Shown here: in pieces, positions 48,445 through 54,519 of the stretch
How the letters are laid out: each line of letters starts with the position of its first letter
Position numbering within the stretch: position 1 is the stretch's first letter
DNA from: Pseudanabaena sp. UWO311
GTDB lineage: Bacteria; Cyanobacteriota; Cyanobacteriia; Pseudanabaenales; Pseudanabaenaceae
Length of the DNA: 64,000 bases
Reading direction: 5' to 3'
Assembly (NCBI RefSeq): GCF_006937785.1
Contig: NZ_SJEE01000023.1
Coordinates: 1-64,000, forward strand
Program-made: the position numbers and the translations under genes
Notes under the pieces: generated by a model
Database searches by the model: none
What the model was told of the DNA's origin: nothing
The model's input: only the letters and a program-made list of their open reading frames with translations

Positions 48445-48790
48445 AGGACTAATGTATATTTAGCTTAATATACCGCGATGTGCAACTATTTCTAGCTGTA
48501 AGTAATTCCTTACTAAACTGCGATCGCAATGATCGCTTAATAACTATTTGTCTTCTCGTCGGGACGCATTCTGAAAGGAATCGCCGATAACTTCTCGGAA
48601 CTAAACAACGAAGCGAACCATTTTTGACTGCCTAATCTTTGCTCGAAACAGATAGCTTTAACGGGCGCATCGGTTCGGTATAACGGTCTATTTGAGCCGC
48701 CGCAAACAATTTTTGACTTTTATAGATCACTTTTGAAGGGGCGGCTCCAACGCAGTGTTAGACAGCTTTCACTGATAACTTTTTACTGAG
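48445..48790. other. Spacer holding the distal end of the integron array
   Basis: 48445-48592 contains HIP1 sites and nothing else recognisable. 48593-48763 is one copy of a 171-bp repeat whose right half is an attC-like site (48678-48763). The copy at 50166-50336 has the same length. Confidence 0.6.
48678..48763 (-). other. attC-like recombination site 1 (86 bp)
   Basis: Read on the minus strand: R'' GTCTAAC, spacer ACTGC, L'' GTTGGAGCCGCC, a central part, L' GGCGGCTCAAA, spacer, R' GTTATAC. L'' and L' pair with one unpaired base, the extrahelical base expected in attC. R'' fits the RYYYAAC consensus; R' departs from GTTRRRY at one base. It begins 27 bases beyond the stop of the aspartic-protease gene (48791), the position expected in a gene cassette. 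Confidence 0.78.
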
Positions 48791-49162
48791 TCATAGCGCT
48801 TCAACTCTCACGATACCTCCTTCAACTGCATCTATTCGCAATCCATACTTGTAGAGTAGCGACATTCCAATTAAAGGGTCAGTCTCTGATTCAGCAACAT
48901 CAATTTCACGAAACTGTCCATCCCAGATAACTGTTACTGAATACAGATCAAAGAAAGTTTCGCTACCGTCACCCAAGGTCACGATGTCGGAAGCGTTCCA
49001 CGGTAAATCAAGAGCAGTAATGATTGAGGATGGCAAAGTGAGGAACCCATTGAAACCTGTGTCAATGACAGCATCGATAACTTGCCTTTGCCCGTTCGCA
49101 TTACCCACAACCAATGGAAGTGTTGCCTCACAGCGCCGATTCACAATTCCCTGCATCATTTG
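48791..49162 (-). CDS. Retropepsin-like clan AA aspartic protease, intact copy
   Basis: A 123-residue protein starting at MMQGIVNRRCEATLPLVVGN (49162). The DTG motif in DAVIDTGFNGFLTLP holds the single catalytic Asp (about residue 33), typical of retroviral-type aspartic proteases that act as dimers. VTLGDGSETFFDLYSVTVIW and LIGMSLLYKYGLRIDAVEGG complete the clan AA fold. The start overlaps the stop of the ~90-aa gene by seven bases, showing translational coupling. The same two-gene order occurs at 49513-50018. The upstream frame up to 49225 is antisense-like filler. Biological role unknown; a toxin/antitoxin-like or processing pair is inference. Confidence 0.78.
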   Translation of the reverse strand, partial: QMMQGIVNRRCEATLPLVVGNANGQRQVIDAVIDTGFNGFLTLPSSIITALDLPWNASDIVTLGDGSETFFDLYSVTVIWDGQFREIDVAESETDPLIGMSLLYKYGLRIDAVEGGIVRVEAL

Positions 49163-49431
49163 GGCTTCACCAAACTCCGCGAGCCAAAGTGATAAACAGC
49201 ACGATGTCCAATGCGGATAACCCAAGGTTGAGCATCAGGATGTCGCTTGAACAATTGGTTAGTTGCTGGCAAAACATGATCTGCAACTTCAAAAGCTCCA
49301 GTTTCAATATCGATCGCTACTATTTTGCCTGTATTGCCAAATTCTACTTCCTGCCGAATGCTCGATTCATAGAGTTCTTGCCCACGTCGAGCTAATTCTT
49401 CTTTGCTGTAACGCCGTTGACGAACTGACAT
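49156..49431 (-). CDS. ~90-aa partner protein, downstream copy
   Basis: A 91-residue protein (MSVRQRRYSKEELARRGQEL). It is a paralogue of the product of 49746-50018: both share the RYSKEE start, GNxGKIVAIDIETG(A/D)FEV in the centre and HPDAQ(P/I)W(V/I)(I/V)R(I/V)G(H/S)R with a basic tail. The first third looks helical and the rest beta-stranded. I do not recognise a named function. It precedes, and overlaps by seven bases, the intact aspartic-protease gene. The conserved acidic IDIETGxFE segment could mimic a substrate or bind the protease; that is speculation. Confidence 0.72.
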   Translation of the reverse strand: MSVRQRRYSKEELARRGQELYESSIRQEVEFGNTGKIVAIDIETGAFEVADHVLPATNQLFKRHPDAQPWVIRIGHRAVYHFGSRSLVKPK

Positions 49432-49512
49432 AGCTTTTGTGTTGTTAGTTTATAATGTCATTATAGCTTTGAGCAACAATGAAACCCTACATTTGGCAAT
49501 AAAAAAGGTTCG

Positions 49513-49749
49513 TTACATACCATTAACGCACCCTGCAAGATCGGCGATCGCACTTCCATCGCCAAGAATAGCGCGTCCTCGTCTTTTCCATTTCAGATTT
49601 AACCGTTCAATCAGGTCTGGAGGCAATGAAAGCCAACCATTAAAACCAGTATCGACAATCGCATCTTGCGTATAAATCTTTCCTTCAGAGACACATATCG
49701 ATAGCGAGATAATTGCCTCAAAATCTGTGTTAACAATTCCTGAGATCAT
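49513..49749 (-). pseudogene. Retropepsin-like protease, truncated copy
   Basis: A 78-residue frame (MISGIVNTDFEAIISLSICV) homologous to the first two-thirds of the 48791-49162 product. It retains the catalytic DTG in DAIVDTGFNGWLSLP and ILGDGS, but then reads AIADLAGCVNGM and stops; the C-terminal GMSLLYKYGLRI half is missing. It overlaps its upstream partner gene by four bases (ATGA). The loss of the C-terminal dimerisation strand suggests an inactive or non-autonomous form. The break lies near 49555, at a HIP1 site. Confidence 0.7.
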
Positions 49750-50018
49750 ACTGCTCTTTTTGTTCGTCCACCAAATCGGCGAACGTGGCGGGAACCGACT
49801 CGAACAATCCAGATTTGAGCATCTGGGTGACGGGCTTCGAGCCTATTGCAAGCAGCTATTTCACGAGCATCAACTTCAAAGTCTCCAGTTTCAATATCAA
49901 TGGCAACTATTTTGCCCTGATTACCTGCTTCGACTTGTGGGCGTATTTGAGTCTGATAAATTAGATCGCCTCGTTGGGCAAATTCTTCTTTGCTATAGCG
50001 GGGTTGACGGACTGCCAT
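49746..50018 (-). CDS. ~90-aa partner protein, upstream copy
   Basis: A 90-residue protein (MAVRQPRYSKEEFAQRGDLI) about half identical to the 49156-49431 product, with the central GNQGKIVAIDIETGDFEV and the basic C-terminus SRHVRRFGGRTKRAV. The stop overlaps the start of the truncated protease. It is the first gene of the segment between attC2 and attC1 as read leftward. Proteins of this size with a protease partner are new to me as a named system. The basic tail might bind nucleic acid. Confidence 0.72.
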   Translation of the reverse strand: MAVRQPRYSKEEFAQRGDLIYQTQIRPQVEAGNQGKIVAIDIETGDFEVDAREIAACNRLEARHPDAQIWIVRVGSRHVRRFGGRTKRAV

Positions 50019-50452
50019 GATTGCGAATTTTCCTAGATCATTGACTTGTCTAGCATTATAGCTGACCAGAAATCGCTATGAATAGATTGCCTCTCACATA
50101 TCCAAACCAAACCGCGATCGCACCGATCGCCTATCAATTATTTGACTTTGTGATCGCAATTAATCTCTCGGAACTAAACATCGAAGTCGAAGATTTTTGC
50201 TTGCTCAATCTTGGCTAGAAGCCACTCACTTCAACGAACTTCGCGATTGTGCATAACGGTGAAGTTGTGCGGCGGTAAGTAGCCTTGAACACCCACTGAA
50301 AACCTCTATACCGTCCGCACCAACGCAGTGTTGGGCTGCTTAATTTACTCACTAAGATGCTGGATTTTCAGCACAATCGCAATAATTGAATGCAAATTGC
50401 CTAGCGTTCCGAGAGAGGTAACAACTATTTGACTCATGCTCCTACCTCTAGA
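50019..50452. other. Spacer holding the second 171-bp repeat
   Basis: 50019-50165 carries the upstream region of the ~90-aa gene; no promoter was recognised. 50166-50336 is the second 171-bp repeat, including attC2. 50337-50452 follows the Rieske gene stop on its strand and shows nothing further. Confidence 0.55.
50251..50336 (-). other. attC-like recombination site 2 (86 bp)
   Basis: On the minus strand: R'' GCCCAAC, spacer ACTGC, L'' GTTGGTGCGG, centre, L' CCGCACAAC, spacer TTCACC, R' GTTATGC. L'' and L' pair with one extra base in L'', as in genuine attC sites. It has the same length as attC1 and a shared spacer ACTGC. It lies 117 bases beyond the stop of the Rieske oxygenase gene. Confidence 0.8.
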
Positions 50453-51433
50453 TTATTCATGAGGTTGCCATTCACGATAAAGTTTCTCCACATAGAGCAT
50501 GATTTCCTCTTTGGGCAGACGAATCTTGGGCTTTTGCTGGGGATAGAGGCTTTCTAAAGTTGCTGAATCTTGTTCTACCACCATAGCTGTTGCTTTGAGC
50601 AAAGCATTTTTAGCCAGAACATTCAATCCTGGTAATTGGAACAACGGATTTTTCCATTCTCCATAGCAAAGAACGAATGTTTTGGTGCGTCGATCGGTTT
50701 CGGGATAGAGAATATAAAATTGAGGAATCTGACCGAAATCAACGTCTCCATCGAACATTGTGGTGGAGGGAAACGTATACTCCAAATTGCTGTTATAGGA
50801 TTGAGGCATACTGATAAGCCCAGGATTTGCCAGAATTTCTTTGAGGGTATTCCGCTCCCGGATAAAAGTCTGCTCTACCTTGGCGAAGTAGCCATCTGAT
50901 TCAAACCTGTGGACAGGATTATCTTTGATTTTAAAGCTTTTGCGATGACTTCCATTTTGATGGTTAAAGTCATAGTTGATTTTGATGCAGCTTAGAAAAT
51001 CTGCATGAATACTTTTTTCGCCAGCAACACCCACAAAGGTTAACCCTGCGGTTCTTCTGGGAATCAGATCGGGAATGGGCAAGCGCGGTTCAAATCCCCC
51101 ATAAGTCCAGATTAGATCGTCCTTAATATGCAACTCTAGAGGCTGTACGACTGCCTGTCCCTGCGCCAAACCATCTTTGCACAACCGACCTTCCCGATCG
51201 AATTCAAGAGCATGAAATGGGCAAGTAATCGTGTCATGAGACTCGCAAATCCATCCATTAGATAGAGGTGCTTGCATGTGAGGACAGGTGTTTTCTAATG
51301 CAAAAATATTCCTCTGGGTATTTTGCCAAAGAACATAATCCTGACAATTTAAGGTCACTTTATAAGGCTGATTTACGCCCAGCATTGAGCGATGGGCAAC
51401 GAGCCAAGGCGCACCAGGAAGAATGGGGAGCAT
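50453..51433 (-). CDS. Rieske [2Fe-2S] ring-hydroxylating oxygenase-like protein
   Basis: A 326-residue protein. The N-terminal Rieske domain (about 8-110) has CPHMQAPLSNGW and CPFHALEFD, giving the 2 Cys/2 His cluster ligands. The C-terminal part resembles the catalytic domain of short oxygenases (PaO-like), with YDFNHQNGSHRKSFKI containing possible mononuclear-iron His residues and a second Asp in FDGDVDFGQIPQFYILYPET. Its substrate is unknown. It is divergent from a TetR-family gene (starts 67 bases apart), implying local regulation. It lies within the integron array between attC3 and attC2, a large two-gene segment of about 1.8 kb. Confidence 0.78.
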   Translation of the reverse strand: MLPILPGAPWLVAHRSMLGVNQPYKVTLNCQDYVLWQNTQRNIFALENTCPHMQAPLSNGWICESHDTITCPFHALEFDREGRLCKDGLAQGQAVVQPLELHIKDDLIWTYGGFEPRLPIPDLIPRRTAGLTFVGVAGEKSIHADFLSCIKINYDFNHQNGSHRKSFKIKDNPVHRFESDGYFAKVEQTFIRERNTLKEILANPGLISMPQSYNSNLEYTFPSTTMFDGDVDFGQIPQFYILYPETDRRTKTFVLCYGEWKNPLFQLPGLNVLAKNALLKATAMVVEQDSATLESLYPQQKPKIRLPKEEIMLYVEKLYREWQPHE

Positions 51434-51500: not shown

Positions 51501-52088
51501 ATGGGTCGTCCCACCAAAGAAAATTCGCTGTCGAGGCAAGATGTCGTTGCTGCGGCGATCGCCTGTATCGATCGAGAAGGAGCGTCGGCACTAAGCGTGA
51601 GTCGTGTGGCACGAGAACTTGGCATTAAGCCTCCTGCCATTTACAAGCATTTAGAGAGCGGATTAGCATTACAAAAGAGCGTAGTATGTAAGCTTTGGGG
51701 ATATTACTTACAGGAATGTCAAGAGAAGATTATTGAAACTTCTATCCCCTCAGAATCGTTAAAACAGATGGGACATTTCGCCCGTCACTTTGCCCGCACC
51801 TATCCTGCTCGCGCTCAGATCATGATGCAAACTCGACTTCAGACCAGCGATCCAGAAGCCGCAGAGATTATCCAGCAATTTATCATGTTTCTGCGTCAGA
51901 TGCTGGGTGCTTGCGACCTTGCGGACGATCGACTCATTGATGTGATGCGGATGATTAATGCCGCAATTTATGGGTTTATCACGATCGAACAAGCAGGACT
52001 AATGACGTTAGAGCGTTCTGCGGATCGGAGTTTTGAGGTCATGTTAGAGGCGTTGATGGTAGCGATCGCACATATCCAGCAGCATTGA
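51501..52088 (+). CDS. TetR-family transcriptional regulator
   Basis: A 195-residue regulator. The N-terminal helix-turn-helix reads LSRQDVVAAAIACIDREGAS then ALSVSRVARELGIKPPAIYKHLESG, the TetR signature. The C-terminal ligand domain (about 75-195) contains MGHFARHFARTYPARAQIMM. It is divergent from the Rieske oxygenase gene, so that gene is the probable target and its substrate or product the probable inducer. It runs against the usual cassette direction. Its stop is 43 bases from attC3. Confidence 0.85.
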   Translation: MGRPTKENSLSRQDVVAAAIACIDREGASALSVSRVARELGIKPPAIYKHLESGLALQKSVVCKLWGYYLQECQEKIIETSIPSESLKQMGHFARHFARTYPARAQIMMQTRLQTSDPEAAEIIQQFIMFLRQMLGACDLADDRLIDVMRMINAAIYGFITIEQAGLMTLERSADRSFEVMLEALMVAIAHIQQH

Positions 52089-52130
52089 ACTCAGAATTTG
52101 CGGATTGTGATTTCACTAATAACTCCAGCC

Positions 52131-52219
52131 GCCCAACGAGTCCGTTCACCCGCCGCGAACTACCTCTCGGACTCAACCAACCATCTTTTAACGGTCGGCG
52201 TGCAACGGAATTGTTGGGC
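52131..52219 (-). other. attC-like recombination site 3 (89 bp)
   Basis: On the minus strand: R'' GCCCAAC, AATTCC, L'' GTTGCACGCCG, centre, L' CGGCGGGTGAAC, then GGACTC and R' GTTGGGC. Both R boxes fit the consensus exactly. L pairing is imperfect, with unpaired bases on both arms. The TGA stop of the GNAT gene is separated from R'' by only three bases, the classical cassette layout. Confidence 0.82.
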
Positions 52220-52222
52220 GGC

Positions 52223-52750
52223 TCAACTGGTTCTGAGATTTCCTGTATCCACCCATCCATAAGCCACCTCGATTAGCGGCTTTCCACCAATCGTAAGCTC
52301 CTTTTCATGAACAATCTTGCCTCCAAGGGCAGCATAAAATTGACACGCAGGATTATCGACCAACACCCACACCAACATGGAATTAATACCCAATCGACCT
52401 AGCCTTTCCGCGACGACCTGTAAGAGTCCGCGTCCAATGCCTTTTCCTTGATAGCTTTGTCGGATATAGATTGCCATCAACTCACCTCTATATATCGGAT
52501 CACCTATGCGCTCTACCCCTCCATTCGCAAATCCGACAATCTCACCAGATTTATCCTCTGCAATATAAGTAAAATTGCCATCGTCCGGGGCACGGTTCAA
52601 AATCTGATACCAACCGTTTGCCCGCCGCTCATACGATAGATTTGCTAGATGTTCATCTGGCACGATGCCGCGATAGGTCGTTCTCCAAGTATCCACATGA
52701 ACCCTGGAAATGGCGGGAACGTCGCTCTGAGTTGCTTCTCTTATCATCAT
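52223..52750 (-). CDS. GNAT-family N-acetyltransferase (first integron cassette)
   Basis: A 175-residue GNAT (MMIREATQSDVPAISRVHVD). The acetyl-CoA loop is visible as RQSYQGKGIGRGLLQVVAER (R/Q-x-x-G-x-G/A), with LAVLVW-like NSMLVWVLVDNPACQFYAALGG, the motif B Asn-Pro and Tyr. The substrate is unknown; cassette GNATs include aminoglycoside and streptothricin acetyltransferases, but this one has no specific signature. The gene is bounded on the right by an attI-like core (52899-52905) and on the left by attC3, so it is the first cassette. Met2 at 52747 is an equal start candidate. Confidence 0.82.
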   Translation of the reverse strand: MMIREATQSDVPAISRVHVDTWRTTYRGIVPDEHLANLSYERRANGWYQILNRAPDDGNFTYIAEDKSGEIVGFANGGVERIGDPIYRGELMAIYIRQSYQGKGIGRGLLQVVAERLGRLGINSMLVWVLVDNPACQFYAALGGKIVHEKELTIGGKPLIEVAYGWVDTGNLRTS

Positions 52751-53043: not shown

Positions 53044-53321
53044 ATGCAGCATAACATTCCTAAACCTGTGCTGAAAAATAATGCGCCTATCCCCACCACA
53101 ACCGATCAAGTTGAGCCACCGCCTAGAAAGCTGCTCGATCGCGTTAGTGATGCAGTTCGGGTCAAGCATTACTCCTATCAAGCTGAAAAGTCTTATGTGC
53201 AATGGGTTAGGCGATTTATCCTGTTTCACAATATAGCGACATCCAAGTGAAATGGGTGGTATTGCATTTACAGGACTTAGAACGTGGACATGGCGAAGTT
53301 CATCTTCCATCGCTGAACTAG
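53044..53321 (+). pseudogene. intI: Integron integrase remnant
   Basis: ATG 53044 opens a frame of 68 residues with PPRKLLDRVSDAVRVKHYSY followed by QAEKSYVQWVRRFILFHN, the N-terminal DNA-binding domain of integron tyrosine recombinases. Removing one T in AATATAGCG restores the expected HNKRHPSEMG; without it the frame ends at 53250. Further on, from about 53259, another phase reads VLHLQDLERGHGEVHLPSLN, part of the central IntI region between the catalytic boxes. About 130 residues between the two pieces and the whole C-terminal catalytic part are missing. It is therefore inactive. Its divergence from the cassettes is the canonical integron arrangement. Confidence 0.85.
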
Positions 53322-53649: not shown

Positions 53650-54519
53650 ATGATCTTCATCAATCCCAAAATCGACTTTGCTTTCAAAAAGATTTTTGGC
53701 TCTGAAGATAGCAAAGATATCTTGATTAGCTTCCTAAATGCTCTAATTTATGAAGCACAGCCAGTTATTTATGACTTAGAAATTCTCAATCCCTACCTTG
53801 CGCCCAAAATTCGCGGTGTTAAAGATACTTATTTCGATATCAAAGCAAAAATTACTGATAGTGAAACAGGTGAACAGCGCACCGTCATCATTGAGATGCA
53901 AGTCCTGAATATAGAAGGATTTGAAAAAAGAATTTTATACAATGCGGCAAAATCCTATTCTGTCCAACTGCCTACTGGACAGGGCTATAACCTTCTCAAT
54001 CCAGTCATTGCCTTAACAATTACTGATTTTGTGATGTTTGCGGATCTACCTAATGTCACCTCTCGTTTTGTCCTAAAAGAAAAAGATTTTCTAATTGACT
54101 ATCCTATCTATGACATTGAATTAATCTTTGTAGAATTGCCAAAGTTCAAAAAGAATTTGCCAGAACTAAAAACCATTATCGATAAATGGCTATTTTTCTT
54201 AAACAACGCTCGTAAACTGCAAAATATTCCTGCAACGATGGATACTATACCTGAAATTAAAAAAGCTTTTTATATCGCCAATCAAGCAAACCTTACTCTT
54301 GATGAGTTAGAAGATCAAGAAAAGAGCGAGATTTTCATTCAAGATCAGCGTGGGGCAATTACAAAAGCGACTAAGGAAAGCTTAGAACAAGGAAGACAAG
54401 AAGGTCAACGGCAAAAAGCCTATGAGATTGCAAAAAAAATGTTAGGTAATTTTGATGAACAAGCGATCGCCGTTATGACAGGGCTAACTCTGGAAGATCT
54501 GCGATCTTTACAAGACTAA
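53650..54519 (+). CDS. Rpn-family recombination-promoting nuclease (PD-(D/E)xK transposase-like)
   Basis: A 289-residue protein starting MIFINPKIDFAFKKIFGSED, the hallmark of the Rpn/PDDEXK transposase family. Asp in GVKDTYFDIKAKITD and Glu-x-Gln in TVIIEMQVLNI form the nuclease site (D...ExQ), as in Rpn proteins. The C-terminus ends in a charged, Gln-rich tail (ESLEQGRQEGQRQKAYEIAK) usual for the group. E. coli RpnA is a Ca2+-stimulated DNA endonuclease that promotes RecA-independent recombination; cyanobacteria carry many paralogues. It lies between the partial and intact copies of aroQ. Confidence 0.85.
   Translation: MIFINPKIDFAFKKIFGSEDSKDILISFLNALIYEAQPVIYDLEILNPYLAPKIRGVKDTYFDIKAKITDSETGEQRTVIIEMQVLNIEGFEKRILYNAAKSYSVQLPTGQGYNLLNPVIALTITDFVMFADLPNVTSRFVLKEKDFLIDYPIYDIELIFVELPKFKKNLPELKTIIDKWLFFLNNARKLQNIPATMDTIPEIKKAFYIANQANLTLDELEDQEKSEIFIQDQRGAITKATKESLEQGRQEGQRQKAYEIAKKMLGNFDEQAIAVMTGLTLEDLRSLQD

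What the first reader, a model, noticed from the sequence alone, without database searches (positions are those of the whole stretch)
48791..50018. Tandem duplicated pair: ~90-aa protein overlapping a retropepsin-like aspartic protease
Two copies of the same two-gene unit lie back to back on the minus strand (49746-50018 with 49513-49749; 49156-49431 with 48791-49162). In both the small gene overlaps the protease gene (4 and 7 bases), so they are translated together. The small proteins share GNxGKIVAIDIETG and HPDAQ. The proteases keep the DTG site. A tightly coupled small-protein/protease pair carried in an integron resembles a toxin-antitoxin or processing system, and I know no named system of this form.
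Basis: partly seen in the sequence, partly recalled or inferred. Interest (0 to 1): 0.8.

Follow-up and report, generated by a model that had tools for sequence, protein, structure and literature searches.

The report
Mobile protease-with-partner pair in cyanobacterial integrons
A tiny uncharacterised protein and an HIV-protease-like enzyme travel as one tightly linked gene pair through cyanobacterial gene-capture arrays and plasmids, and the enzyme gene is almost never found intact without its partner, so the pair probably behaves like a toxin with its antidote, although nobody has tested this.

Summary
Both small/protease pairs exist, but both overlaps are 4 nt (ATGA; second protease starts at 49159, not 49162), and the first protease is a truncated remnant. 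Only 49156-49431 + 48791-49159 is an intact pair.

In cyanobacteria 77 of 103 pairs overlap by exactly 4 nt. In two genome samples intact small genes lacking an intact protease number 60/173, and intact proteases lacking an intact partner only 9/122; nearly all of the nine are explainable, one having lost its catalytic DTG. A diverged clade pairs 57/59 times and sits on 22 plasmids.

The pairs are integron cassettes. attC sites flank them in the window (50249-50339, 48676-48766), an intI remnant lies at 53122-53247, and 17/52 relatives have attC 3-30 nt after the protease stop (1 expected).

Best explanation: a mobile retropepsin-like protease held in check by a co-translated partner, behaving like a toxin-antitoxin cassette. 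Toxicity, inhibition and binding are untested; AlphaFold gave no interface. I found no published system of this form. It is not filed as a type II TA: no DNA-binding domain or conserved operator was found.

The parts
49156..49431 (-). small partner gene of the intact pair, 91 aa; no Pfam, NCBIfam or PADLOC family
   Evidence: predicted helix 10-29, strands 37-41 and 47-50, helix 53-63, strand 69-73, low-confidence conserved tail 74-91
48791..49159 (-). intact clan AA (retropepsin-like) aspartic protease, 122 aa, D33-T-G and C-terminal LIGM; ATG overlaps the small gene's stop by 4 nt
   Evidence: TIGR03698 E 2.1e-15
49746..50018 (-). small partner gene of the first unit, 90 aa, intact
49513..49749 (-). 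truncated protease remnant of the first unit (profile positions 1-68 of 122)
49527..49551 (-). GCGATCGCCGATCTTGCAGGGTGCG: sequence at which the first protease is cut off; near-identical copies flank the protease-less small gene of Pseudanabaena cinerea (L042)
48676..48766 (-). attC recombination site, about 25 nt after the intact protease
   Evidence: 8.1e-19
50249..50339 (-). attC site upstream of the two units (end of the previous cassette)
   Evidence: 2e-17
52129..52222 (-). third attC site, after a GNAT acetyltransferase gene (52223-52750)
   Evidence: (5.5e-9)
53122..53247 (+). remnant of an integron integrase N-terminus, oriented away from the cassettes
   Evidence: NF011946 9e-8, TIGR02249 7.4e-7; no complete intI in the genome
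50055..50082 (-). promoter-like site TTCATA-16-TATAAT, -10 box 36 nt before the first small gene
   Evidence: scan count is not above chance, but TATAAT lies in the same place in relatives
49460..49465 (-). TATAAT 28 nt before the second small gene, kept in some relatives

Best explanation
The unit is a mobile two-gene module: a retropepsin-like aspartic protease with a dedicated small partner made just before it by translational coupling. Most likely the partner is an antidote-like regulator. Its folded core (helix-strand-strand-helix-strand) carries a conserved C-terminal tail that is unstructured alone and would fold on the protease, blocking its active site or dimer interface. Free protease would cleave cellular protein and harm the cell, so the module stabilises the integron array or plasmid that carries it, like a toxin-antitoxin cassette. 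Shown here: pairing, overlap, conserved catalytic motif, purifying selection on both genes, one-sided loss, integron and plasmid carriage. Inferred: binding, inhibition, toxicity, addiction. In the window the 49156-49431/48791-49159 pair is intact; the first unit keeps only its small gene.
For: Coupling: 77/103 pairs overlap by 4 nt and 17 by 1 nt; 57/59 proteases of a diverged clade also have a related small gene directly upstream (the small families are homologous, hhalign E 1.4e-8); distance matrices correlate, r 0.85. One-sided loss: intact small without intact protease 22/71 and 38/102; intact protease without intact small 4/53 and 5/69; combined Fisher p 1e-8, length-corrected binomial p 1e-7, ignoring relatedness. 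Protease remnants lie behind many lone small genes. One really lone protease has NTT in place of DTG (L278). Lone small genes keep dN/dS about 0.11. Mobility: attC 3-30 nt after the protease in 17/52 pairs against 1.0 expected; up to 12 copies per genome and patchy presence; diverged pairs on 22 plasmids, some of 34-43 kb, several beside parA or integrase genes. In P. cinerea the same cassette holds a small gene without protease followed by a HigBA-type TA pair. TA cassettes are known to stabilise integron arrays (PMC11551772).
Against: No toxicity or interaction data. The AlphaFold fusion model gives no confident interface (pTM 0.49), though only three rows were paired. The small protein has no HTH, RHH or AbrB domain and upstream palindromes are no longer than in shuffles. 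Genes next to the pairs are not visibly rich in TA or defence families (no control scan made). One-sided loss would also follow if the small protein were needed to fold the protease and had another use. A related arrangement, DUF5678 fused to the protease in one chain, suits a regulatory domain better than a labile antidote.
Confidence: 0.5

Rival explanations
1. A processing or regulatory protease with a dedicated assembly factor: the small protein is a trans-acting prodomain or specificity subunit needed to fold, dimerise or aim the retropepsin, which does a housekeeping or stress-response cleavage. No poison-antidote logic.
For: Gene order small-then-protease with coupling; DUF5678, with the same order of secondary structures (colinear hhalign p 0.01), is fused N-terminally to a clan AA protease in 18 of 31 cyanobacterial cases; bacterial retropepsin-like proteases with physiological roles are published (PMC12239564, PMC11957791); both genes under purifying selection.
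Against: Patchy multi-copy distribution, integron and plasmid carriage and frequent decay fit a selfish module better than housekeeping; homology to DUF5678 is not established; it does not by itself explain why lone small genes stay conserved.
Confidence: 0.28
2. An anti-phage module: the protease is kept inactive by the partner and released on infection.
For: Integron cassettes and plasmids; one diverged pair sits between pglZ and pglX of a BREX locus; another lies near ParDE and a nuclease gene with its inhibitor.
Against: No PADLOC match; neighbours of 71 loci show no clear enrichment in defence genes; no relatives in phage records or viral contigs.
Confidence: 0.14
3. Two unrelated neighbours hitch-hiking as a cassette without functional interaction.
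For: Lone small genes are common.
Against: Coupling kept across divergence, 57/59 and 113/122 intact proteases with an intact partner, correlated divergence.
Confidence: 0.08

Closest known systems
TIGR03698 / COG5550 clan AA aspartic proteases (pSNCAPs, single-domain prokaryotic relatives of retropepsin)
   Same: Length, DTGF active site, C-terminal hydrophobic-Gly motif; E 2.1e-15. COG5550 described as about 120-residue ORFs of little-known function (PMC2642776).
   Different: The family description names no partner; here a specific small protein precedes nearly every copy. The window copy scores 57.0 bits against a cut-off of 57.35.
DUF5678 (PF18929) fused to, or directly before, DSGA-type clan AA proteases in cyanobacteria
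   Same: Small alpha/beta domain before a retropepsin-like protease; colinear GKIVA(I/V) region.
   Different: Profile similarity not significant (p 0.01-0.03); fused in 18/31 cases; DSGA rather than DTGF protease.
Type II toxin-antitoxin cassettes of chromosomal integrons (Vibrio superintegron, PMC11551772)
   Same: Two coupled small genes as an attC-bounded cassette, a promoter-like site just upstream, many copies, one-sided survival of one gene.
   Different: Protease instead of RNase or gyrase poison; no DNA-binding antitoxin domain; toxicity unproven.
COG2856 Zn-protease/Xre pairs (PMC2701414)
   Same: A predicted protease coupled to a small partner and classed near TA systems.
   Different: Metalloprotease and HTH repressor; a different protease class and a different kind of partner.
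Characterised bacterial retropepsin-like proteases (Rickettsia APRc, Pseudomonas enzymes; PMC4140852, PMC12239564, PMC11957791)
   Same: Retropepsin-like aspartic proteases in bacteria.
   Different: Described in those abstracts as physiological enzymes, not as a mobile pair; no sequence comparison was made here.

Membership tests
Clan AA aspartic protease, TIGR03698 | Catalytic D-T/S-G and C-terminal hydrophobic-hydrophobic-Gly | tested here: met
   D33-T34-G35 and L96/G98 invariant in 39 sequences
Clan AA aspartic protease, TIGR03698 | Score over the curated cut-off | tested here: inconclusive
   Window copy 57.0 against 57.35 bits; a relative scores 70.6; plasmid relatives are annotated as this family
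Clan AA aspartic protease, TIGR03698 | Proteolytic activity | not testable with these tools
   -
Type II toxin-antitoxin system | Two small overlapping genes kept together | tested here: met
Type II toxin-antitoxin system | Putative toxin not kept without antitoxin, antitoxin can persist alone | tested here: met
   9/122 against 60/173; indirect and phylogenetically uncorrected
Type II toxin-antitoxin system | Toxicity neutralised by the partner | not testable with these tools
   -
Type II toxin-antitoxin system | Direct toxin-antitoxin complex | tested here: inconclusive
   read-through fusion model pTM 0.49
Type II toxin-antitoxin system | DNA-binding antitoxin with operator (usual, not universal) | tested here: not met
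   no such domain; palindromes as in shuffles
Integron gene cassette | attC at the 3' end in gene orientation | tested here: met
   bottom strand folds into the attC-like imperfect hairpin
Integron gene cassette | Functional integrase in cis (defines a complete integron, not a cassette) | tested here: not met
   only an N-terminal intI remnant in the window and no complete one in the genome
DUF5678 (PF18929) | Pfam model match | tested here: not met
   hhalign only p 0.01

The most novel reading that the evidence does not exclude
A toxin-antitoxin class, widespread in cyanobacteria, whose toxin is a retropepsin-like aspartic protease and whose antidote is a pseudo-prodomain of unassigned fold supplied in trans, with DUF5678-protease fusions as the single-chain form of the same system.
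Probability: 0.3. Interest if true: 0.85.

Novelty: new variant of a known kind. Interest (0 to 1): 0.6.

Why it matters
Integron cassettes outside the antibiotic-resistance world are mostly of unknown function. Here is one that recurs across many cyanobacterial families, on chromosomes and on plasmids, with a clear genetic signature of a poison-antidote or protease-inhibitor pair. If the protease is the toxin it would be an unusual toxin chemistry for these systems and would give an experimental handle on the roughly 120-residue bacterial relatives of retroviral protease, whose roles are largely unknown. It also gives a concrete hypothesis for DUF5678.

Tried and rejected
Pfam, NCBIfam and PADLOC for the small proteins: nothing significant. 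PDB by sequence: no significant match. Foldseek and VIA-align on the small-protein model: no convincing match, best Z 2.7; this does not show that the fold is new.

Complex by AlphaFold: only one in-frame read-through pair (L086) was usable as query; mixed alignments of small proteins and proteases were mis-registered by MAFFT, so a shallow alignment was used and gave no interface.

Autoregulatory operator: palindromes upstream are not longer than in shuffles. Neighbour scan for TA or defence enrichment: not striking, no control scan made. Viral contigs and phages: nothing. The apparent Chloroflexota locus L103 lies among cyanobacterial genomes in the search, so no pair outside cyanobacteria was shown. 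The resemblance of DIETG in the small protein to DTG was considered and dropped: the first D is replaced in relatives (INVETG, VEPDSG).

Full report
WHAT IS IN THE WINDOW. The host is a Pseudanabaena-type cyanobacterium: loci closest to the small protein are Pseudanabaena. On the minus strand lie two small/protease units. The intact one is 49156-49431 (91 aa) followed by 48791-49159 (122 aa); the ATG of the protease overlaps the TGA of the small gene (ATGA). The other is 49746-50018 (90 aa) followed by 49513-49749, a protease that stops after about 68 of 122 profile positions. Aligned with an intact relative (L081) it breaks off just after GDGS, at GCGATCGCCGATCTTGCAGGGTGCG. Near-identical sequence flanks the small gene of Pseudanabaena cinerea, where the protease is gone altogether. 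The finding therefore holds one intact pair, not two. A third copy, an intact pair, lies on another contig.

THE INTEGRON. A covariance model built from repeats behind cassettes in the genus finds three sites in the window, all on the minus strand: 48676-48766, 50249-50339 and 52129-52222. They have the R and L boxes of attC (TAAC...GTTA) and the bottom strand folds into the expected imperfect hairpin. A remnant of an integron integrase reads away from them at 53122-53247; no complete intI was found in the genome. The cassettes are thus a GNAT acetyltransferase, a Rieske/TetR segment, and the two units. Among 52 complete pairs from the genome collection, 17 have an attC 3-30 nt after the protease stop against 1.0 expected from the density of attC in the same loci, and 25 have one on either side; apart from two weak antisense echoes of strong sites, every site is in gene orientation. 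The model was trained on Pseudanabaena-like sites, so these counts are lower bounds. In the 40 diverged (mostly Nostocales) loci searched, only 2 show attC.

CO-OCCURRENCE. 103 small genes with a protease behind them were collected: 77 overlap it by 4 nt, 17 by 1 nt. In 58 relatives, 49 of 53 intact proteases have an intact small gene directly upstream, while 22 of 71 intact small genes lack an intact protease. In a second, non-overlapping sample drawn from the phylum the numbers are 64 of 69 and 38 of 102. Together 60/173 against 9/122 (Fisher p 1e-8; binomial with gene length taken into account p 1e-7). These tests treat loci as independent, which they are not.

The nine apparent lone proteases were inspected. 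Three have an intact small gene in place with an insertion between. One small gene is cut by a contig end. One pair (G054:C512) is probably intact, the profile match of the protease starting late. One has a very diverged small gene upstream, later confirmed by profile. One small gene is frame-shifted into the protease. One has lost the first 17 residues of the small protein. One, L278, is really alone and has NTT in place of DTG. Behind many lone small genes lie recognisable remnants of the protease, so loss is of the protease.

A DIVERGED CLADE. In Nostocales and others, 120-127-aa proteases at about 40 bits are preceded by about 105-aa proteins in 57 of 59 cases. The two small families are homologous (hhalign E 1.4e-8). 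Tandem triplets occur (L271). Twenty-two plasmid records carry this form, some of only 34-43 kb, next to parA or integrase genes. The middle group occurs on further plasmids, once between pglZ and pglX of a BREX locus.

SELECTION AND STRUCTURE. Median dN/dS is 0.11 for the small gene and 0.10 for the protease; lone small genes show the same ratio against their nearest paired relative, although part of that branch predates the loss. AlphaFold gives the small protein a confident core, helix-strand-strand-helix-strand, and a tail, residues 74-91, of low confidence (pLDDT about 55) although it holds invariant G75, V79 and G83. A conserved but unstructured tail is what one expects of a segment that folds on a partner; that is inference. 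No PDB match of note. A read-through fusion of a naturally in-frame pair gave no confident inter-domain placement.

DUF5678. A search prompted by memory found that cyanobacterial DUF5678 domains lie at the N-terminus of a DSGA-type clan AA protease in 18 of 31 cases and directly before one in two more. The small family here aligns to DUF5678 in a colinear way but only at p 0.01 (diverged clade p 0.03). It serves as a parallel, not as proof of membership.

MECHANISM. Shown: coupled genes, catalytic motif, purifying selection on both, one-sided loss, integron and plasmid carriage. Inferred: the protease is harmful alone, the small protein binds and restrains it through its tail, and the module thereby stabilises the DNA that carries it, as TA cassettes do in Vibrio (PMC11551772). 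The strongest rival is a protease with an assembly or specificity subunit; it explains the dependency of the protease on its partner equally well, and mobility less well.

NOVELTY. Searches of open papers for retropepsin or aspartic protease with toxin-antitoxin, cyanobacteria, COG5550 or DUF5678 gave no such system. A large TA survey (PMC2701414) lists Zn-protease/Xre pairs, and a term search of it found no aspartic protease. Subscription papers and preprints were not searchable. I rate it a new variant of a known kind (mobile two-gene protease module that behaves like TA), with a real chance of being a new TA class.

Noticed in passing
L310, L312, L318, L319, L323, L326, L327, L331, L333-L336, L338, L339, L341-L344: Cyanobacterial DUF5678 (PF18929, function unknown) is fused N-terminally to a DSGA-type clan AA aspartic protease in 18 of 31 cases, which suggests a function for DUF5678.
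   Followed up: partly
L163:3983-4620 (Nostoc sp. MS1 plasmid pNSMS101): A diverged small/protease pair sits in opposite orientation between pglZ and pglX of a BREX locus.
   Followed up: no
L042:4001-5070 (Pseudanabaena cinerea): One cassette before attC holds the small gene without protease followed by a HigBA-type toxin-antitoxin pair (TIGR02683/TIGR02684); a dispersed repeat GCGATCGCC(G/T)ATCTTGTAGGGTGCG lies on both sides of the small gene.
   Followed up: partly
L054:355-8133 (Myxacorys californica) and L281 (Pseudanabaena, G023:C1:3486000-3504000): Long attC arrays: cassette arrays in cyanobacteria, integrase not looked for there.
   Followed up: partly
window 52223-52750 (-), 51501-52088 (+), 50453-51433 (-): Other cassette contents: GNAT acetyltransferase, TetR-type regulator and Rieske-type oxygenase.
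   Followed up: no
window 53650-54519 (+): Rpn family recombination-promoting nuclease/putative transposase next to the integron remnant (TIGR01784).
   Followed up: no
L278:1139-1492 (+): A lone relative of the protease with NTT instead of the catalytic DTG: possible pseudo-protease.
   Followed up: partly
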